Positions 36,482 through 53,178 of a DNA stretch of 64,000 nt are shown here, in pieces. The stretch lies in assembly GCF_010470675.1 (NCBI RefSeq), contig NZ_VOIQ01000014.1, positions 1 to 64,000 of the forward strand. Direction: 5' to 3'. The notes under the pieces were generated by a model, which worked only from the letters and a program-made list of their open reading frames with translations, did not search any database and was not told the DNA's origin. The translations under genes were made by a program, and so were the position numbers. The stretch is from Desulfovibrio sp. JC010. GTDB lineage: Bacteria > Desulfobacterota > Desulfovibrionia > Desulfovibrionales > Desulfovibrionaceae. How positions within the stretch are numbered: the first letter of the stretch is position 1; every line of letters begins with the position of its first letter.

Positions 36482-37057
36482 GTGGAAGTGTCTATGCAGA
36501 ATGTGGCCGGATTCTTTTCAGGTATCATTAAAACTACAACTCCTTTTCTCTTTCTGTGTGCGCTGGCGGCTCTTGCTTATTATGTGTTTTTTGCTGTGGT
36601 GGAACAAATCAGGAAAAAACCTGACCGTGAGTTTACCTTGCGCTCACACATGGCCAATGTTGCGTCGCTTTTGGGACTCGTTGTCGCTTTGTCTATAGGC
36701 GGGACAATTGACAATACTTTCCCAAAGAAGGTGGTCGCAGGTGTGTCTCCTCTGGGGTCTGTATCCGGGCCGGTGGAACCAGTCCCGGTTGTAGTTGAAA
36801 AGTCTGTGCTAAAGATACTGTCCAATAAAATTGAAGTAGTTGATCTTTATAATGAAGCAAGAATTCTCTTTGATGAAAAAACCGGTGATCGTTCCAGTAA
36901 AGAGGTTGACGCTATTAAAATCATGATGGTTTTTAAAAAGGATCTGCCGGATGAAAAGGTCGCTTATGGAATTCTTGACGGTGCGATACGCATGTATCTG
37001 GCTGGTGATAAATCCGGTGCGCTGAAGTGTATCGATTTTGCTATGCAAAATATTTAA
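36482..37057 (+). CDS. Cluster gene A: small two-span membrane protein
   Basis: 191 residues from the GTG at 36482, four bases after GGAGG; a GTG at 36488 is also possible and the frame is open back to a TTG at 36434. Two membrane segments: TTTPFLFLCALAALAYYVFF and, after a basic loop with KKPDREFTLRSHM, NVASLLGLVVALSIGG. The C-terminal 110 residues are helical and soluble, ending GDKSGALKCIDFAM. The family is not recognised. As first gene before the MotA-like channel it is likely an accessory of that channel. Confidence 0.7.
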   Translation: MEVSMQNVAGFFSGIIKTTTPFLFLCALAALAYYVFFAVVEQIRKKPDREFTLRSHMANVASLLGLVVALSIGGTIDNTFPKKVVAGVSPLGSVSGPVEPVPVVVEKSVLKILSNKIEVVDLYNEARILFDEKTGDRSSKEVDAIKIMMVFKKDLPDEKVAYGILDGAIRMYLAGDKSGALKCIDFAMQNI

Positions 37058-37095
37058 ATTGAGGTTGTTTTCTAGTTTTTTAGTGGGGGGGGCTT

Positions 37096-39009
37096 GTGGA
37101 TATTTTGAAGCGTATTTGGGGTGGGCTGCAATTTGCGGCAATGTTTTTAAAATATATTCCGATTCTTATCGCCGTGTTTATAGCGGGATTTGTGGACTGG
37201 GCCTTCTGGGTGGACCGGGCCAAGTTTAGCGGGAATGATATGGCTGATAGTGTAGGACTTTTTTCGCTTTATGCTTCTTGTTTAATTATTAGCTGGCAGA
37301 TTGTTTATGTTCTCTTTTATGCTGGCAAGCTGCTCCTATTGAAGAAAGGCAGGCTTCCCTGTGCGGCAAGCCAGAATGTGAGAGAAGTGTGCATTGCCAG
37401 CGGTATTTTCGGTACATTTCTTGGCTTTTTCCTGTTGTTCGAAGGCTTGGAGTCGGGAAAAGGTTTCAGTCTGAGTGACGGCAATCTCGAAAGTATTACC
37501 CTGGCCATCGGCACCAGCCTTACCGGTGTGGCACTGGCTATCGGATACGATTTCCTGTTTGAACGGGTCTGCAATTTTACTGAATCTGATATCTATGACC
37601 GCATTTTAAGAAGCCGTGGCTTTAATGCGTCTATGCGTATCCTGAGAAAAAGAATGCATCTTTTGGCTGTCAATATTAAATTGATAGATAGAGGTTTGCA
37701 AAATAATGATATTGTAGCACCTCTTAATACTTCGATCACTAATCTGGGGCTCTTTAACGAGCGGGTCCGCTCCGCAACTCCTTCAAAGGATATGGTGGAG
37801 AATATTGCGGACATTGCCCAAAATATTAAGTTGTTGAGTAAAGATGCTGCGCTGGGTGAGCTTGCAGACAAGCTGGCTTCTATCAACGAAAATCTGATTA
37901 CGGTTGAAGATATTAACGCCTTGTCTGAAGCCCTGCGAAAAACTACCGCCGCTTTGGGTGCGGTGGATATAAATGTGATTGTCAATATTTCAACTCAGAT
38001 TACAACAGCATTTAACAACTTGAGGGACGGTTTGGACTATTTGGGACCAACTGCCGATCTCGGTGAGGCAATTCACAATCTTGAGCGGAATATACACGCC
38101 TTCAACGAAAGTACGGTGCTTCAGGAGTTGCAGCAGAGGCTTGCCGAGATCAACAAGAATTTGATCAGCCCTGCAGAGGTGCAGGCTTTGGCCGCAGCCG
38201 TGAGAGCCGCCACACTGACTTTCGGGTATTTGGACGGGGAGCAGCTTCTTGATCTAAGGAATCAAATTCAGGATGCCTTTGCGCGCATAAATGACAGTCT
38301 TGCAGGGCTTGAGCCCGGTGCCGACCTTGCTGCAGCAGTTAATCAGCTTGAAGCTGATATACGTCATTTCAATGAAAGCGCATTGCTGGATAGAACGCAT
38401 CGCAGCCTTGCCGTAATAAATGACACCATGATTGATCCTGTGAGAATTCAGGACTTGAATCATGCAGTAGGAGAGGCGACACGTGCTTTAGAGGGATTTG
38501 GTGAACTGGACTCTTCTGGTTTGGCGCAGGTGTTGAAAGATATTCGGGAGCGTATCGGCAGTCTTGTGCCTTCAAAGGAAATTGTTGACGACTTCGTGAG
38601 TATCGCCGGGCAAATCAGGGCTATAGCCGACCTTGATCTTGCAACTGTTCTCACCGAGTTGCGTCGTACCGCAGGCGCATTTGCCGATATTCCCTATGGC
38701 GACATCCAGCAGATGCCCGACAGAATTCGTCGTATTGCCACTGAGATTGAGGAGTATGCAGATGCCCTTACAGCCGGGGCCGGAGCTTTAACAGTGACCG
38801 GTCCCCTGCGTGAGGCCATTGACAGCCTGACCGGGGAGCTTGGCCGCATACCTGACATAATTTCTGAAAAAACCCTTGAGAGGATGGATGAACAACAGTT
38901 TCCTGTACGGCAGGAAGTCCAGTATGTCCGCGAATACTATTCACGGTTGACCGAATTGCTTATCAATATCCAAACTATGCTGGCTAAAAATGAAGAGCTT
39001 CGGCGTTAG
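37096..39009 (+). CDS. Cluster gene B: MotA/ExbB/ZorA-like channel with long repeat tail
   Basis: 637 residues, GTG start after a G-rich ribosome site. Four membrane segments (about 19-38, 55-79, 99-117, 133-155). The last two, SGIFGTFLGFFLLFEGL and AIGTSLTGVALAIGYDFLF, carry the GxxGTxxG and A/G-T-S-L-x-G pattern of MotA/TolQ/ExbB proton channels. The 480-residue cytoplasmic tail is helical and contains about 90-residue repeats (approximately 208-291, 292-380, 381-472, and a partial 473-536), each with a HFNES-like piece, an INxNLI piece and an ALxxAVRxAT helix. A long tail is also the feature of ZorA. It should form a pentamer around gene C's product and pass force or signal to the cytoplasm. 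Confidence 0.82.
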   Translation: MDILKRIWGGLQFAAMFLKYIPILIAVFIAGFVDWAFWVDRAKFSGNDMADSVGLFSLYASCLIISWQIVYVLFYAGKLLLLKKGRLPCAASQNVREVCIASGIFGTFLGFFLLFEGLESGKGFSLSDGNLESITLAIGTSLTGVALAIGYDFLFERVCNFTESDIYDRILRSRGFNASMRILRKRMHLLAVNIKLIDRGLQNNDIVAPLNTSITNLGLFNERVRSATPSKDMVENIADIAQNIKLLSKDAALGELADKLASINENLITVEDINALSEALRKTTAALGAVDINVIVNISTQITTAFNNLRDGLDYLGPTADLGEAIHNLERNIHAFNESTVLQELQQRLAEINKNLISPAEVQALAAAVRAATLTFGYLDGEQLLDLRNQIQDAFARINDSLAGLEPGADLAAAVNQLEADIRHFNESALLDRTHRSLAVINDTMIDPVRIQDLNHAVGEATRALEGFGELDSSGLAQVLKDIRERIGSLVPSKEIVDDFVSIAGQIRAIADLDLATVLTELRRTAGAFADIPYGDIQQMPDRIRRIATEIEEYADALTAGAGALTVTGPLREAIDSLTGELGRIPDIISEKTLERMDEQQFPVRQEVQYVREYYSRLTELLINIQTMLAKNEELRR

Positions 39010-39024
39010 AGGGTGGTGGTATAA

Positions 39025-40605
39025 ATGAGTTTCAAACGCAGAAGGAGTCTGCTTTCCCCTCTTGTGGATCTTTTCATGATGCTGGCCTTGTTGTTTTTGG
39101 TGCTCTACCTGGCTGCGGATGGTCGCGGTCAGGGAGGCTCGTTTAGCTTTCTGGAAATGAAAAGGGGGGGGACTTTCGCTTATAACAGTGACAATATTGC
39201 AATTGAAGCCGCCCCGGCAATAAGGCAGGCCTTTTATAATATTGTTTATTCCATTAAGAGCGACTGGCGTGATCTGGGAGTGGACAGACCTAGAAGATAT
39301 TACCGCCTGATTGCCAATTCGGATTCTCTTGAATTCCCCGGCAGCGTCCGAAACAGCAGATTGAGTCTGGACCGGGCTACCAGTGCGTTGGTGCTGGGAA
39401 TGATGGAACGAGCAACTTTTAACGAATTGGTGATCTATAAGTATCTGGAAGTTCTCAAAACAAAATTAGGTAAGGACTATGCGGGACCGCAAAATCTGGC
39501 CGAGTTCAGGAAGAAACATTATCGCTGGCTTTATACCAATGACTATTCTACTCCCAAAGCTAATGGAAGCTGTGCCTTCCTGTTGATCTGGTCTGATCCG
39601 GGTTTTACGCGCGACAAGGACAGTCTGCTCTTGAAAATTGAGAAGGAGCAGATCTCATATGCATATTTTGCTATGGACAGCAAAATTGGATTTGACGAAG
39701 AAAAGCCTTTTTACCGCCTTATAACGTACAGAAGTGCCTATCCAGAGTGCGCACTTGATGTCGACAAGGCTCATAGAATTGTAGCCGCTGCACTGGGCGG
39801 GCTTGAATTTCGGCCTGTTAAAAATTCATTTATTCCCCTGCAGGAATATATCGCGACTCATGTGCGGGACAGTCAGGCCTTTCCTATTTGCAGGACTAAT
39901 TATCCGTATCTTCCCTTTCTTCAGGTTTCCTCAAGAGCCTCCTATTTGTCTGACCCCTATGTGTGTACACAGTCGGTGCAGGAGATATCCAGAAAGCTGA
40001 AGGAGCGTATGGCCAAGGAAAAAGACAGTAAGAGGTTGGAGCTGTTGGGACATGCGCTGGGGTATCAGGATATGTCAGGCAACAAAAGAAGCTATTTGAC
40101 TAATAAGCTGTTTAGTTCCGATACCAGTAATGTGGATCGATTTTTTGAGAAAAACGGTCAGGTTGTGAATTATCTCCTGAGCAATCAAAAGAATCGGGAG
40201 TTTATGGTCAAAGAAGTCTGGTATGAGGTTGTGAATGGTAAAAAAATAAACGTTATTAGAGATATCGTTCTAGGCCTTGAGATAATGAACAACAACCCTT
40301 GGGCGAAGAACGGCACAATTTTTAATCGCTGTATGAAGAGTTACCGTGTAGTTCCAACCCCTCTGGAAAAAATACCCAAAAATGAGCGCCAGGCGTTTAA
40401 AAAGGCGTGGGAAAAGGCGCAAAATTGCACTAGCAGCAAGAAGGTAGGGGCGGTTCATGATCGGCTGACAATTTATGCGCTGATGAAGGATGCCTGTAGA
40501 GAGGCTGTAAATAATCCTGATTTATTTAAAACATATAGAATCTTATTCCCTGAATCCAAAAAAGTGAAAGCGAAAATAATAAGTTTAACCAGATGGTTTC
40601 TATGA
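39025..40605 (+). CDS. Cluster gene C: MotB/ExbD/ZorB-like stator protein with novel large domain
   Basis: 526 residues. A short basic N-terminus (MSFKRRRSLLS) precedes a single membrane segment PLVDLFMMLALLFLVLYLA; its Asp at 15 is in the place of the proton-carrying Asp of MotB, ExbD and TolR. The remaining 490 residues lie outside the membrane, presumably in the periplasm. I see no OmpA-type peptidoglycan-binding motif there, unlike MotB and ZorB. Tyr/Cys-rich segments (PICRTNYPYLPFLQ, ECALDVDKAHRIV) might form disulfides. Follows gene B after 15 bases; the two surely act together. Confidence 0.75.
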   Translation: MSFKRRRSLLSPLVDLFMMLALLFLVLYLAADGRGQGGSFSFLEMKRGGTFAYNSDNIAIEAAPAIRQAFYNIVYSIKSDWRDLGVDRPRRYYRLIANSDSLEFPGSVRNSRLSLDRATSALVLGMMERATFNELVIYKYLEVLKTKLGKDYAGPQNLAEFRKKHYRWLYTNDYSTPKANGSCAFLLIWSDPGFTRDKDSLLLKIEKEQISYAYFAMDSKIGFDEEKPFYRLITYRSAYPECALDVDKAHRIVAAALGGLEFRPVKNSFIPLQEYIATHVRDSQAFPICRTNYPYLPFLQVSSRASYLSDPYVCTQSVQEISRKLKERMAKEKDSKRLELLGHALGYQDMSGNKRSYLTNKLFSSDTSNVDRFFEKNGQVVNYLLSNQKNREFMVKEVWYEVVNGKKINVIRDIVLGLEIMNNNPWAKNGTIFNRCMKSYRVVPTPLEKIPKNERQAFKKAWEKAQNCTSSKKVGAVHDRLTIYALMKDACREAVNNPDLFKTYRILFPESKKVKAKIISLTRWFL

Positions 40606-40708
40606 AAATAAGCTTATTTATAGTAAAATTTACTTTTGCAGATAAATATGCAATAGGCTTTATGTGGATAAGTTGTCATGGATCATATTGTCTTATCGGG
40701 GAGGAGTC

Positions 40709-41698
40709 ATGGAGGAACCGGCAGGAAATAATGGTGCTCGGGAAGCTGGATATGTTGCCCGCTCGCCTTTTTCGGTTGATATTGTAGCTGAGTCCCATGC
40801 GATGAAGCAGGTGATGGAGCGTTGCCATTCTTATGGCGGGGTGCATGGTCCGGTGCTTATTACCGGAGAATCGGGTACAGGCAAATCGTTGGTGGCCGGC
40901 CTTATTCATAAGGCTTCAAAACGAAAGGGGCGTTTCTTGCGTCGCGGATGCGGAGAGCTTTCCGGCCCTACCGCCGAATCCTTGCTTTTCGGCCATACCG
41001 ATGATGCCTACACCGGAGCCCGAACTGCTCAGGAAGGAATATTCCATCAGGCTGATAAAGGAACTCTGGTTCTGGATGATATTGATTATCTTCCCAAGAA
41101 ATACCAGCCGAGACTGATGCGTTTTTTGGATGACGGAGCTTTTTGTCGTCTTGGGGAAACCGGGCGACCTGTGGTTGTGGATTGCCGCTTTGTGGCCACC
41201 ACCAATAAGAATCTCGAATCATACGCCAGGGAAGGGCATTTTCTTGAAGATCTTTTTTATAGGCTGATCCGATGGAGGGTGCATATTCCTCCGCTTAGGG
41301 AACGTCCGGCAGATATACGCGAACTGGCAATCTTCTTCCTGCGGCAATTCCAGCAGGAACATCCTGACGACAGGGATACGGATTGGTGGTTTGAGGACGA
41401 TGTGCTTGATATGATGTGCCGCATGGACTGGCCCGGCAATGCCCGTACTTTGAAAGCCGCTGTGCAAAATATAGCCCTTGCGGATCACGGTGGAAACAGG
41501 CCTATTACCCGAATTCAGGCTATGAATTATTTCAATTCTGGTGGCTGCGGGAAAGATTGCGGCAATCTTCAGCCCAATGAAATTCTGCAGATATTGACCG
41601 ATTCAGGCTGGAATATCAGCCGGGCCGCCAAGATTGCGGGAATGGCTCGCGGCACCCTTTATAAACACATTGATAAAAACGGGTGGAAAAAGGAATAG
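40709..41698 (+). CDS. Cluster gene D: receiverless sigma-54 activator
   Basis: 329 residues from the ATG at 40709 after GGGGAGGAG. AAA+ domain: Walker A GESGTGKS (about 53-60), Walker B TLVLDDID (about 118-125), arginine-finger region FYRLIRWRVHIPPLRERPADI, and a C-terminal Fis-type HTH (NISRAAKIAGMARGTLYKHI). The sigma-54-contacting loop reads DAYTGA instead of GAFTGA. There is no receiver, PAS or GAF domain, only a 35-residue N-terminal stretch. Sits between the channel genes and the VWA/tubulin genes, and a matching sigma-54 promoter lies directly downstream, so it most likely switches on the second half of the cluster. Confidence 0.88.
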   Translation: MEEPAGNNGAREAGYVARSPFSVDIVAESHAMKQVMERCHSYGGVHGPVLITGESGTGKSLVAGLIHKASKRKGRFLRRGCGELSGPTAESLLFGHTDDAYTGARTAQEGIFHQADKGTLVLDDIDYLPKKYQPRLMRFLDDGAFCRLGETGRPVVVDCRFVATTNKNLESYAREGHFLEDLFYRLIRWRVHIPPLRERPADIRELAIFFLRQFQQEHPDDRDTDWWFEDDVLDMMCRMDWPGNARTLKAAVQNIALADHGGNRPITRIQAMNYFNSGGCGKDCGNLQPNEILQILTDSGWNISRAAKIAGMARGTLYKHIDKNGWKKE

Positions 41699-41700
41699 CG

Positions 41701-41745
41701 GTGTTCATTGAACAGTTGTGTGCTGTTCGATGAACACTTTTTTTG
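41701..41745 (+). terminator. Hairpin: terminator and/or two activator sites
   Basis: GTGTTCATTGAACAG pairs with CTGTTCGATGAACAC (one G-U) and is followed by seven T, a good terminator for the A-D transcript. The same bases contain two tandem 13-bp palindromes, TGTTCATTGAACA (41702-41714) and TGTTCGATGAACA (41724-41736), centres 22 bp apart and about 107 and 85 bp before the predicted sigma-54 transcript start, the usual place of activator sites. Confidence 0.75.
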
Positions 41746-41788: not shown

Positions 41789-41804
41789 TGGCATACTGCT
41801 TGCT
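41789..41804 (+). promoter_or_regulatory. Sigma-54 promoter of the VWA/tubulin genes
   Basis: TGGCAT-N5-TTGCT matches the -24/-12 consensus TGGCAC-N5-TTGCW with one change and exact spacing. The predicted start at about 41815 leaves a leader of about 14 bases that just includes the AAGGAG ribosome site of gene E. Confidence 0.72.
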
Positions 41805-41828: not shown

Positions 41829-43652
41829 ATGAAAGTAAATAGATTTTTGCTTATAGTTTGTGTGGTGTTGGCGGCCGGGATTGTTTCGGTTGAGCGCGGC
41901 TTTTCGGCTTCGCAACCGGACGATGCTTTTTCGGTGCGTAAAAATATTTACGTCTATCTGGACTGTTCCGGTTCTATCATCCAAAGGGGGGGGAAGGCCA
42001 AGGGACAGAGTCCGCATTCACTGCTCATCCAGATGATTGAGAAGGCCCTGAATCCCGCAGCCGGATTTGTACAGCCTGACGACCGTGTATTCATAAAATT
42101 CTTCTCCGACAAGCTGGAGTCCGGTGGCAGCAATTCCATCGACGGTCGCGATACCGTCGCTCTTGATAAGCGGCTTGAGCAATATGACAATCACGAAATT
42201 TCTTTTGCCTCCAACCTTGATGCGGTGATGGCGGATATTTCAAAGGTGGTCAGCAGCACCGAGAATGAGCAGGTCTACAATTTTTTCATCATCGCCAGCG
42301 ACTTTGTAAATGATCCTGTTCCCAGCCGATCATACTGCACAGCCATAAGGGCCGAGAGCCTGAAGGCCAATATTGAAAATCTGGCCGACGAATCCTCAGC
42401 CGTATTTTCCGGTGACGATCCCCGCAACAAGATCGTCATGTTTGTTTTTCCTCCGCCGGAATCCTCCAAGCATGCACAGTGTTACATGCAGCATGCCATA
42501 AACATGGACCTCATGGTCGGCAGGCTCAATGCCCTGCGTATCAATTATGGCAATGACGATCCCTCCGGCGTGCTGCTCGACAATCTGCTCGACAGCTCTA
42601 CACGCTGGCTTGAAATCGAAGATTGCGAGTTTGTGGTCAACTCCAAAGCTCATTACCCGGACATGCTGCTCACCGTAAAAAACGCAGGTATCGTGGGAGT
42701 CAGGCTCAAGGATATCCTTGTCAGCAGGGATAAGAGTGCCATCCCCCTTCCTGAGGAAACTGCTCCATGGCGGATAAAATCCGTGAATGTCCAGCCTAAT
42801 GGCAGCAGGAAGGTTTCCTTTATTCACAACCCGGACATGAAGAACGATTACCGGGATTTGCGTACCATCATGCTTAGTACTTATCAGGAGCCTGAACCTC
42901 TCAAAGGGGCTCCGCACATGTTTTCCGTTGATATTCCGTCCGGTAATATCCGTATCCTGAATGTTTCAGCCTCCCTGATTCCGGGCAAGGATGCACTTGT
43001 TCGTTTGAAAGGATTTGTGGAATCACGCACCGAGGAAGGTGGAGCGGTTATTTTCAGTGCTTATGCCCGCGAGAACGCTAAAATCCTTATGGAGCATGAC
43101 GACAAAAAGGTTCAGCAGGATGAGGAGCTTAGGCGCTGGATTCATATTGACGTGCCCCGTAACAAAATCAACGATCTTGATGAACTGAGCCTGCAGGTCC
43201 GCATGGGCACCCTTTCCGCTGAGAAAACCGTGGATATCACCACCTGGGAATACTTCAGGGTATGGATTCTGTGCGTGCTACTGCCCGTTCTTCTGGGGAC
43301 TGCGTACATAGCCTATTATATTATAAGGCTCAGGAGGCTGGAAGCCCTCGGATGGAGCAGTGTACTTGCCTTTGTCATTTATGTGGCCAACCTGTCCCTT
43401 GCGATGTCATGGCTCATGGGCATGATCGCCTTTAAACCGCTCTGGGCTATCCTGCCGGGAGCGATCTTCACGGCCCTCTGGGTCTATCAACTCATTTCTC
43501 TGGTCCTTTATCCGTACATGGATAATTTCCTGAAAAGCACCAACCGGATTCCCTTTGAAGCATATGCCGTCAAGCTTTACGGCGTGGCTTTCGCTGTCGC
43601 TTCCGTAGTCGGTGTGGCCGCTTATTTTACCCTGAACATTTTTGCCGGATAG
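41829..43652 (+). CDS. Cluster gene E: exported VWA protein with four C-terminal spans
   Basis: 607 residues. Signal peptide 1-26 (ends GFSASQ). VWA domain with a full MIDAS-type DxSxS: YLDCSGSI (Asp 45, Ser 47, Ser 49), and the later FFIIASDFVND Asp. A middle beta-rich part (about 240-470), then four membrane segments beginning VWILCVLLPVLLGTAYIAYY and ending VASVVGVAAYFTL. So the metal-dependent adhesion domain faces the periplasm. Same size and layout as gene G. First gene behind the sigma-54 promoter. A ligand or partner, perhaps gene C's outer domain, can only be guessed. Confidence 0.8.
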   Translation: MKVNRFLLIVCVVLAAGIVSVERGFSASQPDDAFSVRKNIYVYLDCSGSIIQRGGKAKGQSPHSLLIQMIEKALNPAAGFVQPDDRVFIKFFSDKLESGGSNSIDGRDTVALDKRLEQYDNHEISFASNLDAVMADISKVVSSTENEQVYNFFIIASDFVNDPVPSRSYCTAIRAESLKANIENLADESSAVFSGDDPRNKIVMFVFPPPESSKHAQCYMQHAINMDLMVGRLNALRINYGNDDPSGVLLDNLLDSSTRWLEIEDCEFVVNSKAHYPDMLLTVKNAGIVGVRLKDILVSRDKSAIPLPEETAPWRIKSVNVQPNGSRKVSFIHNPDMKNDYRDLRTIMLSTYQEPEPLKGAPHMFSVDIPSGNIRILNVSASLIPGKDALVRLKGFVESRTEEGGAVIFSAYARENAKILMEHDDKKVQQDEELRRWIHIDVPRNKINDLDELSLQVRMGTLSAEKTVDITTWEYFRVWILCVLLPVLLGTAYIAYYIIRLRRLEALGWSSVLAFVIYVANLSLAMSWLMGMIAFKPLWAILPGAIFTALWVYQLISLVLYPYMDNFLKSTNRIPFEAYAVKLYGVAFAVASVVGVAAYFTLNIFAG

Positions 43653-43669: not shown

Positions 43670-46600
43670 ATGGCTGATAAGTATTTTCCCGCACTTATTA
43701 TAGGAGTCGGAGGTTCCGGCATCAGGACCCTGCGTTTTATTCAAGCCCAGGCCTCAGAAGGCAAGGATCCGGAACTGGCAAGAATGCTTGATAACGGCAC
43801 CATTCAGCTTTTGGGGATTGATACCGACGCTAAAAGTAATGCTGTTGACGAAGTGGTCGACCCTAATCTGGTCAATGCCGAGGGCGTGCCCGAAGGACAG
43901 CGTGAAGAAGCCCCGCGCATCCTGCCCCGGCTCAAGAAGTGGATCACCATCCCCACTGAATCCATCAATGACGCCCTGCCCAAGGTGCATGAATCTTTCA
44001 TGCCCCGGCAGGATGATGACAACGAACGCAGTGCCCATATCGTGAACGCTTCCGGGTTGGATATTCCGCACAAGAGCATCGCTCGCTGGTTTCCCCGTGC
44101 CGACCCTGAAACCGGTGACCAGATCACCATGGGCCATTCCAAGATGGGCGGTGCCGCCCAGTGGCGTCCGCTGGGACGTCTGGCATTTTTTCTGGAATCC
44201 AAGAGAATTTACGAGGAGATGCAGCAGGCCTACACGCGTATCAAGGACCAGACCAATTCTAACGGTCCGGTCCGGGCCTACATTGTTTCGTCGCTGGCCG
44301 GAGGAACCGGAAGCGGCATGTTCTGGGATGTGGCCTTTTTTTTACAGATGATCCAGCGCCAGACCCGGACAATAGGCACCTTCATCCTTGCCGAGCCTTT
44401 TCTCGCTGTAGATGAAGGAGGGCGTTTGCAGCCTAATGTTTATGCGGCTCTCAAGGAGATGGCCTGGCTTAAGAACTGGCGGCGCAGCGAAACCATCAAG
44501 GTGGAGTATCCCATCGGTTCCACCAAGAAGGTGTTTACCGGCAAGCCCCATTCCACGCTTGTTTTCGATATGGTCTACCTGTACCAGTCCTTTGCTCCGG
44601 GGTTCGGTGTTGCCGATTACAGTAAGGCCACCATCGACGCCACCTGCTTTAGGGTCAGCCAGAATATACTGGCCCAGCTGAGGACTGATCTGCACGCGGT
44701 GCTTGATGTGGGGGCCAACAACATGAGCAGTGATGTCACGGCCATGTCTTCGTCAAGGGAAGCTTCTTATTGCTTTTCCACTTCCGGAGCTACCCAGTTC
44801 CATCTCAGTGTGGCCGCGCCTCTTTATACTCACTTCACCAGCCAGTGGACCCGCACCCAGCAGGAGGAGTTTTACAAGATCCAGTACAACCCGGTGCCGC
44901 AGGAGGATTTTCTCGATTCCATCGGCCTCGGTGAACTGGATGTGGATGGACGCGAAAGTTTTTTCGATCTCTGGATGAAACGTCAGGTTGAGCAGATGAT
45001 GGTAGAGGGCTCACCCGAATTGCGGGAAGTGTCCGGGCGACTTGAAAAAGGGCGTGAAAAGCTCAGCGGTGTTCCCCTTGGCGGCAGCAGTGACCGGGGT
45101 AATGATAATACTGACGGCTACAAAAACTGTGCCTCTGATCCGCGTCAGGTTTATAATGATTATGTGGACGATGATCTCAAGAAGACCTTGCGCCTATGCC
45201 AGAAAAACAGGGGTGACTTCACCGAAAGTTTCACCTCTGTGGAACGCATGTTTGATACCGAGGTTAAGTGCCGTCTGGATGAATTGCTTAAAACAATGGA
45301 GTCCGGGGTGGAGTCGTTCCTTGAGGGCAGTTCCATTCTGGACAAGCGGGGGCGGGCCATCCTGTTGCGGCTTATGAATGAGCTTGATGAGAATATGAAG
45401 GTGGCATCCCGGGATAATGATCTTAAATTATTCTGCCCAATTGCCTACAGTCAGGCCAGCATTTATCTGGACGGCGGCAAGAGGTTCTATATGCCCCTTG
45501 GGTTGGGGCGTTTTCCGGACAAGGCCCGCCGTGCGGTTCTGGCTGTTTTTGACGACCTGCTGGCCCAGATTTCCAATAAGAGCAGTTTCGACAGCGATGC
45601 CCTTGAAAATTATTTCAGGGAGATATGGAACAGGCAGCGCAAGCAGTTTCAGAAACTTCTGCGCAGGATCGTTGAAGAAGATGAAACTCGTCAAGGCAAG
45701 CAGGGATATATCTACAAGGTTATAAATGAGCTTGAAGACGAAATGGATAAGCAGCCCAAGGTTGAGGCTGAAAAGAGTCAGCTGGAATCATTGTTTCGGG
45801 CCATGGTTCCCGAAGGCAGCACTCTTGACGGCAGCGAAGCATGGTTCCAGAAACATTCATTGGCTCTTAACCGCGAGTATGAAGAATATCTTGAAGGCCG
45901 TCTGGATAACAAATCTTTCGGCAAGGGTCGCAACAACACTCTTTTTCCTTGTCAGGACCATGATCAGGTTCACAGTGCCCTGACTGTACTTGTGCGCACA
46001 CTCAAAGAAATTGAAACAGATACCACCGCCGATGAAGATGGCAGACTCAAGAAAAGTTCAACCGCGCTGGTCGATTATTTTGAGAAGTTGTTTCCGGCCA
46101 ATGAATCGCTTTTTCCCAGCGGCTCTCAGGTGAACAGGAATGTTGAAATCTGTGAAGGGATCATCCGTACCACCCTGTTGTATTGGACCAACCAGAATAA
46201 CCTGCTCATCCAGCGGGCCGGAGGCGAGGACGGACTCAGGAGACGGCTTGTGGCCTGCCGGTCCTCGGTGTTCAGGAACGGAGTTATTGAGAACACGCTG
46301 CGCAACCGCCATCTGGTCATTATTCCGCCTTCCAGCAGGGAAGGAAAGCGCAATTTCCAGAGTGAGCGCCGTGAAATCCAGCAGATGTTTCATAACGTGA
46401 GTCAGGAAGTGGTCCAGACTACTCCCTCAGTGGCCAATACCGGCTCCGATGCTCCAATTATTTATTATGATGATCTGTTCCGTTCTCCGGAAGAGGTTAA
46501 TCGAATCAGGGAATATTACGAATCCTATTCTCATTATTCATCTAATTCACGTCGTTTTTTTCACGCCTGTGCCGACTGGGCCGATTTTGAGGAAGTGGTG

Positions 46601-48307
46601 GGCGAGGCTGTGGACCATGAACCGGTTTTTTGCGGCAACCCGGGCTGTTCGGTCAACATCCGGCGTTATTCTCGCTCGGAAAGTGTCTGCCCCGGCTGCG
46701 GGCAGCCTATTTGGAACCGTTGCGGAAATGAGAATTGTGCTTCGGATAACGTACTTGATCTGGTGCGCAGCCATCAGGAAGAGGGCGGAGGTTCCATCCC
46801 TTATTCCTGCCCTGCTTGCAAAGGGGATCTCAAAAACTACTGGTGGGAATGCCCGGAACACCTGAAAAAGGTTCCGGCGGACAAGTCTATCTGTCCGGAT
46901 TGCCTTATGGAGTATCAGCAGGGAACCCGTCCCTATGACAAAACCGGAAAAAGGGCTGGGCATCAGGTCACTTATTGTCCCGGTTGCCTGAAGCTTACTG
47001 GTGGCGACGAGAAGAAAAGTGTCAAGGTGCCCCGTGAACTGGAAGCGATGTTTCGCAACGGGGTCAACGGGCATGATACACTGCCGTTTGATTCTCTGGT
47101 CAAAAAGTACAAGCTCAATCCGCATATCTGCCCTAATCAGGATAAGATCCATTACCTGTTCCCCACCTGCTCCGAAGACCAGCGGGACAAGGGCAGGGTT
47201 CACCATGTCTTTCGCAATGAGGGCCGTTTTTATTGTTTGAAGCATCCTGACATCCATTTCCTTGAATGCCACAGCTGCCAGTATCCAATTGATGAAAATG
47301 ATGAGGAGCTTAAAAATAAGGGTCAAACCACCTGTCCGAGGTGTTTTACCGAGCTCAGGCGCTGTGCCTTTTGCAGTGACAAGGAAAAGAAACTCTACCG
47401 CAGCGACAACAACAAATGCCCCAATTGTGGAAACCTGATGAGCGTCGGTGACAACATCGAGAAGATCTCTATCGAAAAGAAATACAGGGAACCTGCCTTT
47501 TGCCGGAACCTGTTTACCTGCGAGGCCGGTTCACGCCCATGGCAGACCGCGACGGAGTATGATCTCAAAAACTGCCGTGTCTGCCCGGAAAAGCTGGGCG
47601 AATGCAGTCGCAACTACGGACGTCTTGAGCCCTCGGCACTGCTGGCTCGTCAGGATCTGCATTTTTACGTGGATTTCTGCCCCATGTGCATGGCTCTGCT
47701 CGGAAAATATGATGACAAGGGCTATCTTAATGAACTCAGCGGCGTGAAGATTCTTGAACATTTTCACGAGATATATAAGAAGGATAATGGAAATGATTCC
47801 AGGCGTTTACAGGGGCGTTGTCCCATCTGCAGCACCAAGCCGTTCGAGATTATGAACTGGATGGCCCTGGACGGTTTTTTTATGGACAACCAGCCTTTGA
47901 GCAGGCTGCATTTGCACAGAGAGTTTACCGGTAACGGTTCCGTTGCCGATGACCTGCCGTCCGGGGTTTACATGGATTCCATCATGAGCTGGTGCAACAA
48001 TAACGGAGTAACCCACAAGCCGGAGTTTGATTTCAATATCGGCTTCAGCATCCTGAGTATCGTGCACCGCAATCTTGATGATAATGCGGCTTATGAAGCC
48101 ATTAAGGGGCTTGAGCGGTATTACAGCATGGTTTTCGATTTCAAGTCTACCAAGAAGGAGCTGATCAGTGTGTTTGATACCAGTTCCGTTACCGGGCTAG
48201 GTCTCATGCAGCGTCTCAATTGTCTTGAGGACCGTTTCCTTGAGCGCACCCGTCGTGAAAAACAGAGCGTCAGTTACGGTGAAGGCAAAGGCAGTGGAGG
48301 TTTCTGA
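43670..48307 (+). CDS. Cluster gene F: tubulin-like GTPase with zinc-ribbon array
   Basis: 1545 residues; AGGAG before the ATG. The N-terminus IIGVGGSGIRTLR (about 10-22) and the loop SLAGGTGSGMFWD (about 207-219) are the nucleotide-binding glycine loops of the tubulin/FtsZ superfamily, in the bacterial Tubulin_2 type. A long helical middle (about 430-950) follows. From about 986 to 1386 there are eleven CxxC pairs and two CxxxxC pairs, enough for six or more zinc ribbons (CPGC, CPAC, CPDC, CPRC, CPNC, CPMC and others). No membrane segment, so cytoplasmic. It may polymerise or act as a GTP-gated scaffold beneath the VWA proteins. Confidence 0.82.
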   Translation: MADKYFPALIIGVGGSGIRTLRFIQAQASEGKDPELARMLDNGTIQLLGIDTDAKSNAVDEVVDPNLVNAEGVPEGQREEAPRILPRLKKWITIPTESINDALPKVHESFMPRQDDDNERSAHIVNASGLDIPHKSIARWFPRADPETGDQITMGHSKMGGAAQWRPLGRLAFFLESKRIYEEMQQAYTRIKDQTNSNGPVRAYIVSSLAGGTGSGMFWDVAFFLQMIQRQTRTIGTFILAEPFLAVDEGGRLQPNVYAALKEMAWLKNWRRSETIKVEYPIGSTKKVFTGKPHSTLVFDMVYLYQSFAPGFGVADYSKATIDATCFRVSQNILAQLRTDLHAVLDVGANNMSSDVTAMSSSREASYCFSTSGATQFHLSVAAPLYTHFTSQWTRTQQEEFYKIQYNPVPQEDFLDSIGLGELDVDGRESFFDLWMKRQVEQMMVEGSPELREVSGRLEKGREKLSGVPLGGSSDRGNDNTDGYKNCASDPRQVYNDYVDDDLKKTLRLCQKNRGDFTESFTSVERMFDTEVKCRLDELLKTMESGVESFLEGSSILDKRGRAILLRLMNELDENMKVASRDNDLKLFCPIAYSQASIYLDGGKRFYMPLGLGRFPDKARRAVLAVFDDLLAQISNKSSFDSDALENYFREIWNRQRKQFQKLLRRIVEEDETRQGKQGYIYKVINELEDEMDKQPKVEAEKSQLESLFRAMVPEGSTLDGSEAWFQKHSLALNREYEEYLEGRLDNKSFGKGRNNTLFPCQDHDQVHSALTVLVRTLKEIETDTTADEDGRLKKSSTALVDYFEKLFPANESLFPSGSQVNRNVEICEGIIRTTLLYWTNQNNLLIQRAGGEDGLRRRLVACRSSVFRNGVIENTLRNRHLVIIPPSSREGKRNFQSERREIQQMFHNVSQEVVQTTPSVANTGSDAPIIYYDDLFRSPEEVNRIREYYESYSHYSSNSRRFFHACADWADFEEVVGEAVDHEPVFCGNPGCSVNIRRYSRSESVCPGCGQPIWNRCGNENCASDNVLDLVRSHQEEGGGSIPYSCPACKGDLKNYWWECPEHLKKVPADKSICPDCLMEYQQGTRPYDKTGKRAGHQVTYCPGCLKLTGGDEKKSVKVPRELEAMFRNGVNGHDTLPFDSLVKKYKLNPHICPNQDKIHYLFPTCSEDQRDKGRVHHVFRNEGRFYCLKHPDIHFLECHSCQYPIDENDEELKNKGQTTCPRCFTELRRCAFCSDKEKKLYRSDNNKCPNCGNLMSVGDNIEKISIEKKYREPAFCRNLFTCEAGSRPWQTATEYDLKNCRVCPEKLGECSRNYGRLEPSALLARQDLHFYVDFCPMCMALLGKYDDKGYLNELSGVKILEHFHEIYKKDNGNDSRRLQGRCPICSTKPFEIMNWMALDGFFMDNQPLSRLHLHREFTGNGSVADDLPSGVYMDSIMSWCNNNGVTHKPEFDFNIGFSILSIVHRNLDDNAAYEAIKGLERYYSMVFDFKSTKKELISVFDTSSVTGLGLMQRLNCLEDRFLERTRREKQSVSYGEGKGSGGF

Positions 48308-50112
48308 TGCACATGGGGAGGTGGATCGGGTTGGCCCTGGTCGTGATATCTGCGGTTGTTCTGTCCGGGCATGCTGCCCGGGCGGAGCATTCGGATGATA
48401 GTTATCAGCTGTATTTTTATGTGGATAAATCAAATAGTCAGGTCTCCTCTGAGGGGGAATCTTATGCTTTTGGCAATGCGGAAAAGCTTGAGGCTGCCAT
48501 TAAGGAGGATAAAGACCTTATCGCTCGTTGCAATAGGGAAATGTATGAGTTTGCAGATATTGTTGTTGAGGCAGGGACAGGAAACGGCCAATTGAATGAA
48601 AATATTACCCGTCTTGGCTGCGTGTATGAAGATATCGCTAAAAAGATAGATGCAATATCAGATGATGATGATAAACAACATGTTTTTTTTATTGTCAGTG
48701 ATTTTGTTGATTCCGGTGATGATGGGTATATTGTTCAATGTGATTTTGATTCATTTAATAGATCAACAGATGTTTTTAGAGATCTTGTCAAGAAATTTAA
48801 TGGCAGGAATAAATCGAAATTAACTTTAATTATTAGTGTGCTGGCTCCTAAATCATTCTCCGGAGCAGCGATCCAGCCATGTGTTAAATATTTGCAAGAT
48901 AAGTTTAAAAGCGAGTACAGTGGCCATCAGAAAGAATATAAGAATATCAAACAGGTTAAAAAGATAGTTCAGGAGGTGCGCAGATTTGTACTACTAGAAA
49001 GGTTAAAGCTGATACCATCAATTTCAAAAAAGGATATAGTAAAAATACGTATTTTGAATGATAATAATTGGCCGATAAATGCGAAAATAAATGTATGTGA
49101 CAAGTTGTACTATGGAGAAGGTAATAACTATAAAGGATTGATAGAGTATAAGTCTTCTGTGACTGTAAATGGGAAGGATTATCGTGATATAAATATTAAA
49201 GTAAATAAGGATGGCAATGTAGACAGAGTGAAAGAGTTTGGTGTCTATGCGGATATAGTCACAAACAGTACCGTGCTGCATAGATATCAGAAAAATAAAT
49301 TAAGTTCGAATATTATTAAATTCAAATTTCCTAGTGCTAAATTTGATCTTTTTTTTGAGAACGGATTCATTACTAGATTTCGCTGGAAGCACAACTATGC
49401 GGCAGCAGTCCTTCCTATTCATTCTGATAACTATATAGCATGCGCAACTGTTGAGGATGATCCTTTTAAGATATTTATATCAGATGCTGATATTAATCAT
49501 ATGTTTATCCTCCAGAGGGACAAGAAACAGAATGGGATACCTGAGTATATGCGGCTTCTCATTCCAACCCACGAAGCTTACAAGTCATTGCAAAACGCCG
49601 ATATGACACTGGTCAGGTCCAATGTCGAATGGGACAGGATAAAATTCAACGATCTGGATGGCATTGACGATTTGCTGATTGAAATCGACCTGTATACCTA
49701 CGGATTTATTGCCGTATGGGTTTTACTTGTTCTGCTGTTTATTGCCAGAGTCAGTCCTGCCAACAGCATTGCTTTGATCTGCTCGACAGTTCCCATTCTA
49801 TTCGTGTTGCTTGAAGTTATTTTCAATACGAGCGGACCGTTTTCCTACAAGTATTTCTGGTGGACGGAGATTGTTCTTCTGTTCATTCTTTGTGTGGCTC
49901 TGTTTTACAGAGTTTCGATCATAAGGTGGTCGCAAAAAGTCCGGGTGGCCCACGGTCAGGTTCATACTGACAGGTGGTGGCACCCTGTTCTTTTTTCGGT
50001 CTTGTTTGTGGGGCTGCTTTTCTGGTACGGCTATCGCGCCTACGGCGTATTCTCCAAAGTATATGTAAACGACTGCTACGATGTGGAGGTGCCTTACAGT
50101 GCGACAAAATAA
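48307..50112 (+). CDS. Cluster gene G: second exported VWA protein with C-terminal spans
   Basis: 601 residues, start overlapping the F stop (TGATG) with GGAGG upstream. Signal peptide ends near RAEHS. The VWA MIDAS is YVDKSNSQ (Asp 40, Ser 42, Ser 44), with FFIVSDFVDSGDDG as later Asp. Four C-terminal membrane segments (FIAVWVLLVLLFIA; LICSTVPILFVLLEVIF; IVLLFILCVALFY; VLFSVLFVGLLFWYGY). Layout and length match gene E: a paralogue. Bases about 48600-49450, the VWA and middle part, are clearly more A/T-rich than the two ends of the same gene, suggesting replacement of the exposed domain. Confidence 0.78.
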   Translation: MHMGRWIGLALVVISAVVLSGHAARAEHSDDSYQLYFYVDKSNSQVSSEGESYAFGNAEKLEAAIKEDKDLIARCNREMYEFADIVVEAGTGNGQLNENITRLGCVYEDIAKKIDAISDDDDKQHVFFIVSDFVDSGDDGYIVQCDFDSFNRSTDVFRDLVKKFNGRNKSKLTLIISVLAPKSFSGAAIQPCVKYLQDKFKSEYSGHQKEYKNIKQVKKIVQEVRRFVLLERLKLIPSISKKDIVKIRILNDNNWPINAKINVCDKLYYGEGNNYKGLIEYKSSVTVNGKDYRDINIKVNKDGNVDRVKEFGVYADIVTNSTVLHRYQKNKLSSNIIKFKFPSAKFDLFFENGFITRFRWKHNYAAAVLPIHSDNYIACATVEDDPFKIFISDADINHMFILQRDKKQNGIPEYMRLLIPTHEAYKSLQNADMTLVRSNVEWDRIKFNDLDGIDDLLIEIDLYTYGFIAVWVLLVLLFIARVSPANSIALICSTVPILFVLLEVIFNTSGPFSYKYFWWTEIVLLFILCVALFYRVSIIRWSQKVRVAHGQVHTDRWWHPVLFSVLFVGLLFWYGYRAYGVFSKVYVNDCYDVEVPYSATK

Positions 50113-52357
50113 CTCTTTTTTTAATTCCAGACCGACCCTTTACATCGGGCTCGGCGGAGCCGGAATCCGGGTGGTCAGCACTTTGCGTTCTTATTTGCGT
50201 ACTGTGCATCCCGACATGAATAAATCTCTGTGCCGGTTTGTCGGCATAGACATTGAATCTGCATACCAGCTTCCCCATGAAGAAGGCGGAAACGGGACTG
50301 AATATTCGGCTTTGGGGCCCTTGCGTATCCTAAATGATATTGATCCCGGGGGCCGTGACTCATGTCTCGATTACCGGGTTGCCCTTGACCTTGATGCCAC
50401 AGTCACCGCGGTGACCAGAATGAAATCCGGTGCCGGGTTCGGCGAATCATATCCTACGCTCCGCGATTGGTTTCCCGTACCAGAAGGGCTGACCGAGACC
50501 GCCCCCTATCATCTGAGCAAGACCGCAACCGGGCTTTTATGGCGCCCGATCGGTCGTCTGGCGTGGGCTTTTAATTACCGGTCTATTTATTCAACTCTTT
50601 CAAGAGCTTATTCTGAACTTAGTCAGGGACGTTCCCATTATGTGCGGGCAGTGGTTGCCGGATATCTTGGCGGCGGGGTTTGCGGCGGGACATTCTGGGA
50701 CGCAGCTTTGATGCTGCGCCGTATGGAAAGCGAAGTGGATTTCGAGATGCTGGGTTATTTCATGCTCCATGCCACGGAGTCGGACTCTTTTCCGGAAGTC
50801 CACCGCCGCAATAACGTCGATGCGGCTCTGACCGAAATGGATGCGTACCTGAAGCGGCCTGCCGGAACTCCCCTGCAAACTTATACCCCCGGTGCGCCGA
50901 GAGGGGAAAATCTCTCCGGATATCCTTCGGCCAGTCCGGTATTTGATCGTATTTATCTGTATAAACCGAAACGAAGTCTTGAAGCAGGCAGGAGCGAGAT
51001 TCTGCCGGGCCATTCGGATTGTCTGAAAATGGCCAAGAATATGGCGGCCTTTGTCACCCCTTCGATCAGCGAATATGTCTGCTCAGTACATGCAGCACTT
51101 TCGTCTGCAGACCGCGCTGGCAGTGGAAAGCCTCGGCTGGCGGTCTCGGCAAGTTTTCCTTTTGAAATGTATGATCTGAATGAGGCCGCCGGGGTCCTGA
51201 ATGAGGCTCTGAAACTGACCCGGACCGTAGATCCTGTGCCGGAAGATGGACCGGATGCTTGGAAGGAAAGTGTCCGGGCTAAATCAGAGGGTGATGAATC
51301 CGGCAGAAATAAGATTACAGCACCCGCGTCCGGTACAGATACGGATTTGTCAGGTCGGACTTATACGGAAGACGATAAAGTTCGAGATCTGTTGATTGAT
51401 GTGCTGGTCAGATGCGTGTTGCGCATTTTGCTGGAAAAAGAATGTCCAGATGAAGCAGCTTTCCGCAAGGTCATGGGCGAGTTTGATCTGGGGCTTGATA
51501 TGGTTTCCTCCAAAAGAATAATCGCTTCCGCCGACAACCGGTATTGTGGTCCTTTATGCTTGCTTGTGGAAAAGGCTTCAGCCGGTAATATTCCCGGTGT
51601 GCTCAACAAGTTCACGGTAATCCAGAAGAACCTGTACGCCGTGCAGGATAAGTACGAATCTCTGAAAAAGATGGCAATGCCGTATCATCCTGCGGAAGAC
51701 ATAACCGGACGTCCTTTAAGGGACATTGTTAAGGAACTGGATGCCGAGGGCCTCGTGCATCGAGAAAAAATCAAGAAGCCTCTGGCGGATGAATCGTTAC
51801 CTGTTTCTTTTGCCTCACAGGACAAGGCTGTGGTGGATTTGGCACTGGAAATTGTTCGACAAGGTCTGCTGCAAAGAGCCGGGACTCATAAGGTGGGGAC
51901 TGATATATCATGCAGTGAATATGAGCATGATCTCTACGGGCTGTTGCGAAACTCGGCCCATTTAGCGAAAGATTGGGAATATGGACCCTACTCCGGGGAA
52001 GTAACTCTGCTTCAGGAGCGTAGGTATGCGGGGTTGCTGGACGTAATCAGCGAGCCGGATATGTTCAATTCATTAATGGTAAAAATTAAGGATATTTTTT
52101 GCCGGCAGGATGAGTGGCTTAGACGGGGGGCTGCACAGGCCAGTGATGCCCGTAAAGGTCTGGGTGCAGTGCGTAGTATACTGGAAAAGTTGAATCTGGG
52201 CCTGCACGAGAACAGGTTTCCTGATTCGGCACTCGGGGGTTTTGTAAAAGCGTGTTTGTCAGGAAAATGGGAAGAATTTCGGGACTTGTTTGAGAAAGTT
52301 AGCGAGGGCAAAGTGCCTTCAGATCCCGCAGGAGAAGATGGAGGGGCAGGTAGGTGA
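50099..52357 (+). CDS. Cluster gene H: second tubulin-like protein, altered GTP loop
   Basis: 752 residues from a GTG at 50099 (GGAGG upstream), overlapping gene G by 14 bases. N-terminal YIGLGGAGIRVV is a normal first glycine loop. The signature loop reads LGGGVCGGTFWD (about 188-199), where gene F has LAGGTGSGMFWD: the Thr and following Gly are replaced by Val-Cys, so GTP hydrolysis may be impaired. Shared motifs with F (LLWRPIGRLAW versus QWRPLGRLAF) show common descent. No zinc ribbons. Probably forms a heteromer with F. Confidence 0.78.
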   Translation: MRQNNSFFNSRPTLYIGLGGAGIRVVSTLRSYLRTVHPDMNKSLCRFVGIDIESAYQLPHEEGGNGTEYSALGPLRILNDIDPGGRDSCLDYRVALDLDATVTAVTRMKSGAGFGESYPTLRDWFPVPEGLTETAPYHLSKTATGLLWRPIGRLAWAFNYRSIYSTLSRAYSELSQGRSHYVRAVVAGYLGGGVCGGTFWDAALMLRRMESEVDFEMLGYFMLHATESDSFPEVHRRNNVDAALTEMDAYLKRPAGTPLQTYTPGAPRGENLSGYPSASPVFDRIYLYKPKRSLEAGRSEILPGHSDCLKMAKNMAAFVTPSISEYVCSVHAALSSADRAGSGKPRLAVSASFPFEMYDLNEAAGVLNEALKLTRTVDPVPEDGPDAWKESVRAKSEGDESGRNKITAPASGTDTDLSGRTYTEDDKVRDLLIDVLVRCVLRILLEKECPDEAAFRKVMGEFDLGLDMVSSKRIIASADNRYCGPLCLLVEKASAGNIPGVLNKFTVIQKNLYAVQDKYESLKKMAMPYHPAEDITGRPLRDIVKELDAEGLVHREKIKKPLADESLPVSFASQDKAVVDLALEIVRQGLLQRAGTHKVGTDISCSEYEHDLYGLLRNSAHLAKDWEYGPYSGEVTLLQERRYAGLLDVISEPDMFNSLMVKIKDIFCRQDEWLRRGAAQASDARKGLGAVRSILEKLNLGLHENRFPDSALGGFVKACLSGKWEEFRDLFEKVSEGKVPSDPAGEDGGAGR

Positions 52358-53178
52358 GCAGTAACAACAGGTTTGAGACTAAAACCTTTTCGTTTGATTT
52401 TGTTGAAGACAATTTTGAAAAGTGGAGTGGTTTGATCCATTCGCCTGCCCTTGACGAGTTCTGGGACAGGATTTCCGGCTTTGCCGAGGTTGCTTTTGAA
52501 GCGGATGGAGCAGCTGTTGCGAAAAGTGAACTCATTGAGGATCTGGCCCGTCAGATTGCCGCAAAATTAGGAGCACATAAGGATGGTTCGTACATAGGCA
52601 ATGACGTTGTCTCGGAAGCTTTAAAAATAGTTCAAGCAGTGGAATCAGCTGACCGGATCGGATTCTATACGGCCCTGATTCAGGGGGTGCATGGGCTTAC
52701 GGAAAAGAAAGGTGATGCTTTGCAGAATGGTGATTCCAAAAGTGTGGGAATGCTGTTGGGCGCGGTGTTGGATGTTTTTACCGCAAGTGTCAAGGAGTCT
52801 CTTTTGGAAAAGGATATCAGGCAATGGTTGCGGGACGGGCAGACCCTGCTGCCTGAGAACCTGCCTGTTCCCGAGAGGACAAGGGTGGTCGTCTACAGTG
52901 GGCCGGCCGGGGATACCTTGAAAGACGGGAGTATGGGGGATTCGTTGTTCAAGTGCGGATTGGAAGTGTTTCATGCTGATGTGGAAAAGCGACTCGGACC
53001 CTCTGCCGTTCCCCAGCTTTATTTTGAGGACATTAGTTTTTCCCTTGATGCTGTTTGCAGCGATGGTGTTGGAGGTAGGGGCCGTTTTGAATCCATGCCT
53101 GATGATGAAAAAAAATACTATTTTGTGTTTCCAGAAGTTTTTGTGTCTCAGAATCACGAAGAGAGTGATGAAGATTAG
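52354..53178 (+). CDS. Cluster gene I: soluble hypothetical protein
   Basis: 274 residues, GTG start overlapping the H stop (GTGA), AGGAGAAGATGGAGGGG region upstream. Mostly helical to about 170, then a beta-rich end (TRVVVYSGPAGDTL, PQLYFEDISFSLDAV, KKYYFVFPEVFVSQ). No signal peptide or membrane segment. Last gene of the cluster and translationally coupled, so its product likely works with the tubulin-like proteins. Family not recognised. Confidence 0.7.
   Translation: MSSNNRFETKTFSFDFVEDNFEKWSGLIHSPALDEFWDRISGFAEVAFEADGAAVAKSELIEDLARQIAAKLGAHKDGSYIGNDVVSEALKIVQAVESADRIGFYTALIQGVHGLTEKKGDALQNGDSKSVGMLLGAVLDVFTASVKESLLEKDIRQWLRDGQTLLPENLPVPERTRVVVYSGPAGDTLKDGSMGDSLFKCGLEVFHADVEKRLGPSAVPQLYFEDISFSLDAVCSDGVGGRGRFESMPDDEKKYYFVFPEVFVSQNHEESDED

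What the first reader, a model, noticed from the sequence alone, without database searches (positions are those of the whole stretch)
36482..53178. Nine-gene cluster joining a proton-channel pair, a sigma-54 activator, two VWA proteins and two tubulin-like proteins
Genes A-I lie on one strand with overlaps or small gaps: small membrane protein, MotA/ExbB/ZorA-like channel, MotB/ExbD-like partner, activator, VWA, tubulin-like, VWA, tubulin-like, soluble protein. Channel and stator-type protein should use ion flow; VWA domains face the periplasm; tubulin-like GTPases are in the cytoplasm. Together they suggest an envelope machine with a cytoskeletal part. Its place in a mobile island near transposase remnants fits a conflict/defence or stress role. 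I know of no named system with this set; Zorya shares only the channel pair.
Basis: partly seen in the sequence, partly recalled or inferred. Interest (0 to 1): 0.92.

Follow-up and report, generated by a model that had tools for sequence, protein, structure and literature searches.

The report
Sigma-54-switched tubulin and VWA operon
Nine neighbouring bacterial genes turn out to be built around a smaller conserved unit, a dedicated gene switch that drives a membrane-anchored sensor-like protein and a tubulin-like protein, probably an envelope-stress or anti-phage response that the literature foresees only in part.

Summary
The nine genes are there, but not as one simple unit. A terminator, two 13-bp dyads and the window's only perfect sigma-54 site separate A-D from the tightly coupled E-I. 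The conserved core is D-E-F: a sensor-less PspF-like AAA+ activator, a VWA membrane protein, and a tubulin fused to a Cys-rich (zinc-ribbon-like) array. Seven of 82 genomes of the order of Azospirillum carry full-length F with the VWA gene beside it; six of the seven have an intact D. Seven of 8 loci, window included, have a sigma-54-like site and half-dyads before the VWA gene; the exception is the locus with a degenerate D. A-C and G-I were not found outside the own genome. B/C as MotA/MotB-like rests on weak scores. Context favours conflict: the same flank carries known or candidate defence genes in the 4 genus relatives examined, and STAND NTPase genes adjoin D in 3 of 4 scanned loci. Best reading: a sigma-54-gated envelope response, probably anti-phage. 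Tubulin-vWA systems are published (PMC2875224, PMC7159879); this switch and architecture I did not find in ten literature searches.

The parts
36482..37057 (+). A: small protein with two hydrophobic stretches, no known domain
37096..39009 (+). B: probable MotA/ExbB/ZorA-like membrane protein (weak evidence)
   Evidence: found only in the own genome
39025..40605 (+). C: one N-terminal hydrophobic stretch with Asp15, possible MotB/ExbD-like partner; no OmpA domain by Pfam
40709..41698 (+). D: sigma-54 AAA+ activator with HTH and no sensor domain (alternative start GTG 40664)
41700..41738 (+). Terminator-like hairpin after D (17 pairs, T run), made of the two dyads
41702..41714 (+). Dyad 1 TGTTCATTGAACA, presumed D binding site
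41724..41736 (+). Dyad 2 TGTTCGATGAACA, 22 bp from dyad 1
41789..41804 (+). Sigma-54 promoter-like site TGGCATACTGCTTGCT, 25 bp before E
41829..43652 (+). E: signal-like N-terminus, VWA-type domain (DCSGS), several C-terminal hydrophobic stretches
43670..48307 (+). F: Tubulin_2 domain with intact GTP loop and C-terminal Cys array (11 CxxC)
48307..50112 (+). G: second VWA-type protein, weak paralogue of E (22% over 162 aa)
50081..52357 (+). H: second Tubulin_2 protein, altered GTP loop (GGGVCGG), no Cys array
52354..53178 (+). I: soluble protein, no known domain

Best explanation
A sigma-54-gated envelope response, most likely anti-phage. D, an AAA+ activator without a sensor domain, binds the dyads before E and, once released from inhibition, makes sigma-54 RNA polymerase transcribe E-I in a burst. 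E lies in the inner membrane with its VWA domain in the periplasm. F is a cytoplasmic GTP-binding tubulin that assembles beneath it; its Cys array binds a partner. In the three-gene form E and F are the only linked candidates to inform D, so I infer PspA/PspF-like feedback: E/F hold D off until the envelope is disturbed. Here G-H is a diverged second pair (H probably a non-hydrolysing partner), and A-C a stator-like pair plus helper that may feed ion-driven envelope tension into the machine. Shown by sequence: gene content, dyads and sigma-54-like site, conservation of D-E-F with them. Inferred: binding by D, control of D by E/F, polymerisation, topology, the role of A-C, defence.
For: Only perfect sigma-54 site of the window lies in the D-E gap; two dyads and terminator there. 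D-VWA-F conserved in 6 of 7 loci of another class, VWA-F in 7 of 7. Sigma-54-like site and half-dyads in 7 of 8 gaps, 0 of 2000 shuffles as good for either; lost together with D's Walker A in L086. Azospirillum D matches window D best among 22 activators of the own genome, 250.5 against 168 bits; window D at E 1e-60 or better matches one plasmid record, that locus. rpoN present. Defence setting; vWA-tubulin next to BrxL in two Thermaceae plasmids.
Against: No function was tested. PADLOC has no model for E, F, G, H or I nor for a VWA and an F homologue of L088. B/C scores are not significant, and A-C were found in no other lineage. The fourth locus whose neighbours were scanned, L092, has metabolic neighbours. 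In G003 the three genes scanned had no PADLOC match. The window cluster begins 5.8 kb from the shared flank, after a conjugation gene. D's contact loop departs from GAFTGA in the window and in the six intact homologues. F of L088 lacks the GTP-loop pattern that I searched for.
Confidence: 0.5

Rival explanations
1. A physiological membrane-remodelling or vesicle machine (the 2010 FtsZl1-vWA proposal), switched on by sigma-54 under nutritional or other stress, without a role against phages.
For: Tubulin-vWA operons and a membrane-remodelling proposal in PMC2875224 (parts 1-3 of 5 read); L092 neighbours are metabolic.
Against: Defence-type genes at the same flank in 4 relatives, STAND genes beside D in 3 of 4 scanned loci, rarity (Tubulin_2 in 15 of 395 phylum genomes, own included).
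Confidence: 0.25
2. Two or three separate systems that happen to be neighbours: A-C (Zorya- or Tol-like remnant or unknown), D-E-F, and G-I.
For: D-E-F stands alone in 6 of 7 loci; D-E gap ends one unit and starts another; A-C not found with D-E-F elsewhere.
Against: All on one strand; E-I overlap or nearly so, so G-I share the switch; G and H are paralogues of E and F; D lies in the unit behind A-C.
Confidence: 0.35
3. A lineage form of the GAP1-N2 GTPase-centred conflict systems of 2020.
For: Those systems in firmicutes have two tubulin and two vWA genes, one vWA with TM helices and extracellular vWA (PMC7159879 section 29).
Against: No GTPase or GAP1-type match among the nine by Pfam; their tubulins carry coiled coils; MotA, ExbB and Desulfo- do not occur in that text and NtrC once in general terms.
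Confidence: 0.08

Closest known systems
FtsZl1 (Tubulin_2)-vWA predicted membrane-remodelling system, Makarova and Koonin 2010 (PMC2875224; parts 1-3 of 5 read)
   Same: Tubulin_2 gene next to vWA genes, membrane proteins around; vWA with MIDAS motif
   Different: Here a dedicated sigma-54 activator and its sites, a Cys-array tubulin, no protein kinase, P-loop GTPase or OmpA match by Pfam
GAP1-N2 GTPase-centric conflict systems, eLife 2020 (PMC7159879; passages and section 29 read)
   Same: Two tubulin and two vWA genes, vWA outside the membrane, presumed conflict role
   Different: No GTPase/GAP1 component found; sigma-54 switch; Cys array on the tubulin itself
Zorya (PMC11890865; passages only)
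   Same: Possible MotA/MotB-like pair
   Different: No peptidoglycan-binding OmpA domain in C, no Zorya model hit in PADLOC; tubulins and VWA instead of ZorC/D/E
Phage-shock (PspF-PspA) regulation (recalled; papers seen only as listings)
   Same: AAA+/HTH activator without sensor domain beside its sigma-54 operon with upstream sites
   Different: No PspA match; targets are VWA and tubulin genes

Membership tests
FtsZl1-vWA system (2010) | Tubulin_2 domain with GTP loop | tested here: met
   F 117.4 bits against cut-off 27 with AGGTGSG; H 82.8 bits but GGGVCGG
FtsZl1-vWA system (2010) | vWA protein in the operon | tested here: inconclusive
   DxSxS motif and place kept; profile best E 0.013; PF00092 in 2 of 10 family members
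FtsZl1-vWA system (2010) | Frequent partners: protein kinase, P-loop GTPase, OmpA protein | tested here: not met
   no such Pfam match in the nine; the paper calls them frequent, not obligatory
FtsZl1-vWA system (2010) | Filament formation and membrane remodelling | not testable with these tools
   a prediction in the paper too
GAP1-N2 GTPase-centric system | GAP1 and GTPase components | tested here: not met
   no match by Pfam; a diverged GAP1 in A, C or I is not excluded
Zorya | ZorA/ZorB 5:2 ion channel | tested here: inconclusive
Zorya | Peptidoglycan-binding domain of ZorB | tested here: not met
   C has no Pfam match at E 1 or better
Zorya | ZorC/ZorD or ZorE effector | tested here: not met
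   no Zorya model among PADLOC hits
Sigma-54 enhancer-binding activator | AAA+ domain, HTH and sigma-54 promoter nearby | tested here: met
   contact loop DAYTGA instead of GAFTGA
Psp-type control | Protein inhibitor of the activator encoded in the operon | not testable with these tools
   no PspA match; inhibition by E/F is inferred
Anti-phage defence system | Protects against phage | not testable with these tools
   only context:

The most novel reading that the evidence does not exclude
A new class of cytoskeletal defence: a periplasmic VWA sensor and a zinc-array tubulin hold a sensor-less sigma-54 activator in check; phage attack or envelope damage frees it and a burst of VWA-tubulin assembly follows. 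In this genome a second, GTP-inactive tubulin and an ion-driven stator-like pair turn the assembly into a powered, envelope-spanning machine.
Probability: 0.25. Interest if true: 0.88.

Novelty: new variant of a known kind. Interest (0 to 1): 0.66.

Why it matters
Tubulin_2-vWA systems have been predicted since 2010 and their trigger and function are open. A conserved three-gene form with its own activator, presumed binding sites and promoter is a small, testable unit: what releases D should tell what the VWA-tubulin pair senses. If it is defence, it would be a transcriptionally induced, tubulin-based kind.

Tried and rejected
Searches that led nowhere: genome contigs with F alone found none, the two-sequence alignment found one locus; viral contigs gave none for B or H; plasmids gave none for B; PDB by sequence gave nothing sensible for B or F; a 4-member VWA profile found no PDB hit. 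B matched 1 of 395 phylum genomes, the own. Models: B 1-240 mean pLDDT 52; 7 of its first 10 Foldseek hits are ExbB, TolQ or ZorA chains, but the best E is 0.15 and TM-scores are about 0.2, so it carries little weight. E domain mean pLDDT 39, not searched.

Rejected: that the tubulin of G011 (same genus, L024) is the same system; no half-dyad and no sigma-54-like site in 400 bp before its VWA gene, and its activator stands 5.6 kb away beside a histidine kinase. An empty insertion site was not defined: the TetR side is collinear in relatives, but the genes at 53-64 kb were not found in the stretches fetched, apart from two at a contig end in G009. The promoter-like site before A is one of 31 found against 22.8 expected and is not claimed; the terminator-like count, 23 against 19.7, is no excess either, only the stem after D stands out by length.

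Limits of my statistics: gaps were cut at annotated ORF starts, so L084 and L092 missed their sigma-54-like sites, and a stricter dyad definition held in 6 of the 7 loci tested there; one search used gaps lengthened for L084, L086, L088 and L092 after I had seen, and the half-dyad was defined after looking. The sigma-54 consensus was fixed beforehand and is recalled. In L048 the script's best site (1 mismatch) overlaps the VWA start; the site that I believe has 2 mismatches. ORFs were picked by length, which can miss genes in GC-rich loci. A helper read F with alignment gaps; BLAST skipped them, and shifted F positions were redone. Literature searched: open-licence PMC papers only.
Full report
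What is there. Nine ORFs lie on the + strand between 36482 and 53178. Pfam recognises D (sigma-54 AAA+, lid, Fis-type HTH) and the tubulin domains of F and H; A, B, C, E, G and I have no match over a curated cut-off (B's best is a sub-threshold coil-type hit, E 0.0026). PADLOC finds RtcR/PspF-type activators for D, and two weak hits for B, E 0.0056 and 0.028.

One cluster, probably two units. Gaps are 38, 15, 58 (103 with the better D start at ATG 40709), 130 between D and E, then 17, -1, -32, -4. The D-E gap holds two 13-bp dyads, TGTTCATTGAACA and TGTTCGATGAACA, 22 bp apart. Together they form the longest terminator-like stem of the 23 listed for 36-54.6 kb (17 pairs, T run). Then follows TGGCATACTGCTTGCT at 41789-41804, the only zero-mismatch site among 51 matches with up to 2 mismatches in 64 kb (51 is below the 72.8 expected, so only the perfect one is notable). 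With one mismatch allowed, related dyads also occur at 17996 and 46645. The own genome has one rpoN match.

The conserved core is D-E-F. tblastn of F against plasmids found one relative with 68% of F covered, in Azospirillum brasilense, beside a VWA protein and a D homologue. A second came from genome contigs. An alignment of five F-type proteins searched in 82 genomes of the order of G434 matched 16 at 1e-10, seven along the whole length (three of these as two matches). I fetched the five new ones. In all seven the VWA gene precedes F; in L088 it reads as two ORFs. Six have a D homologue (40-45% identical to window D), before VWA in L048, L084, L088, L090 and L092, after F in L044. The seventh, L086, has a 292-aa protein, 23% identical to Azospirillum D over 224 aa, without the Walker A motif. 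By blastp at 1e-3 (1e-2 for L044) no A, B, C, G or I homologue appeared in these stretches; the H-like hits there are F itself. A, C and I were also sought by tblastn in every locus held, with matches only in the own genome; B and G were not sought in the extra flanking stretches.

The switch is conserved with it. A sigma-54-like site (GG and GC kept, at most 2 mismatches) precedes the VWA gene in 7 of 8 loci including the window; shuffles give a mean of 0.28 and 0 of 2000 reach 7. Half-dyads CTGTYCA or TGRACAG are present in 7 of 8 (mean 0.32, 0 of 2000). The locus without either is L086, whose D is degenerate. The limits of this test are told under Tried and rejected; the loci are also related to each other. 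D is specific: of 22 matches in the own genome the Azospirillum D hits window D best, 250.5 against 168 bits, and at E 1e-60 or better window D matches one plasmid record, that locus. D's sigma-54 contact loop (GAFTGA, recalled) reads DAYTGA in the window and L092, DAYTSS in L044 and L048, DAYTSA in L084, GAYTNA in L088, GAFTSA in L090; the Thr is kept in these seven and lost in L086.

Proteins. E and G begin with a signal-like hydrophobic stretch, carry DCSGS and DKSNS and a later S-D-F, and end in several hydrophobic stretches, so the VWA domain should be periplasmic (inference). The 10-member family profile gave 6 PDB hits, best E 0.013: three pilin-type surface proteins, two TRAP-type proteins (VWA by recall) and one PhoU. 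PF00092 matched 2 of 10 members. F has the loop AGGTGSG, 36 Cys after residue 960 and 11 CxxC; nine other F-type proteins have 7-11 CxxC, and eight of the nine the GTP-loop pattern, L088 not. H has GGGVCGG at that place, probably not a normal GTPase. F and H are paralogues (27% over 314 aa, 3e-15); E and G weakly so (22% over 162 aa, 9e-4 by pairwise blastp, no phmmer hit).

B and C. PF01618 touches B residues 97-150 at E 0.131. hhalign against the own genome's MotA/ExbB-type set aligns residues 98-160 with p 0.0066 but probability 5.8%; C's first stretch aligns to MotB/ExbD types with p 0.0062, probability 6.0%, 20 columns; the crossed pairs give p 0.31 and 0.69. A low-confidence model of B has ExbB, TolQ or ZorA chains at 7 of the first 10 ranks, none significant. 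I call B/C probable, not shown. B was found in 1 of 395 phylum genomes, the own, and a MotA-type motif in none of 25 other loci, most of them tubulin neighbourhoods.

Setting. Tubulin_2 occurs in 15 of 395 phylum genomes, own included. In the genus, 16 of 16 genomes, own included, have the TetR gene of the left flank. I examined the four most similar ones (G007, G010, G003, G001); in all four TetR and the cyclase gene are adjacent as in the window. Within about 3 kb of TetR they carry: UG17 reverse transcriptase and SLATT (G007), PD-Lambda-4_A over its whole length (G001), a KAP NTPase with partial PifA/QatA matches (G010), and an AbiJ_NTD5/DUF4145 protein (G003; Pfam only, no PADLOC hit). In the window the cluster starts 5.8 kb from TetR, after a type IV secretion coupling protein. 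Beside D I scanned one neighbour each in L084, L088 and L090 and two in L092: the first three are divergent genes with nSTAND_NTPase5, two of them with a phosphoesterase domain and partial PDC-S60 matches; L092 has metabolic genes. L044, L048 and L086 neighbours were not scanned by Pfam. Two Thermaceae plasmids show vWA-tubulin-hypothetical-BrxL, and another Azospirillum tubulin lies among caspase and OmpA genes. This favours conflict, by association only.

Known and new. Tubulin-vWA operons and a membrane-remodelling role were proposed in 2010 (PMC2875224, parts 1-3 of 5 read); conflict systems with two tubulin and two vWA genes in 2020 (PMC7159879, section 29 and passages). What I read of them does not describe the sigma-54 activator and its sites, the Cys-array tubulin with it, or a stator-like pair. 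A 2026 BREX survey was seen in passages only and does not mention tubulin (PMC12839542).

Verdict. A real and interesting cluster. The nine-gene single system is not established; the D-E-F module with its own switch is well supported by sequence. I rate it a new variant of a known kind.

Noticed in passing
window 29915-30676 flank; L099, L100, L101, L102: The place beside the TetR and cyclase genes looks like a defence hotspot of this genus: four relatives carry four different known or candidate defence genes there.
   Followed up: partly
window 31218-33512: Type IV secretion coupling protein (T4SS-DNA_transf, 2.1e-48), a sign of a conjugative element or its remnant.
   Followed up: partly
window 35908-36225; copies in L099, L100, L101, L105, L107: DUF6573 gene with similar copies at several places in genus relatives, so perhaps a mobile or island-associated gene.
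   Followed up: no
L045 about 10294-18371; L082 about 13188-21147: vWA, tubulin-like, hypothetical and BrxL genes in one row on Meiothermus and Thermus plasmids, near other defence-type genes.
   Followed up: partly
L024 9532-15446: Another genome of the same genus has a different VWA plus Cys-array tubulin pair, without the dyads of this system.
   Followed up: partly
L084 14297-16333, L088 17278-20000, L090 16960-19776: STAND NTPase genes (nSTAND_NTPase5), two with a calcineurin-like phosphoesterase domain, divergent from D.
   Followed up: partly
L057 946-2031 (G000:C14 near 101584-101928, outside the window): A 361-aa protein with a MotA_ExbB match and a GTFLG motif on the same contig.
   Followed up: no
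L047 15393-22766: On an Azospirillum plasmid a tubulin-like gene sits among three caspase-family and three OmpA-family genes.
   Followed up: no
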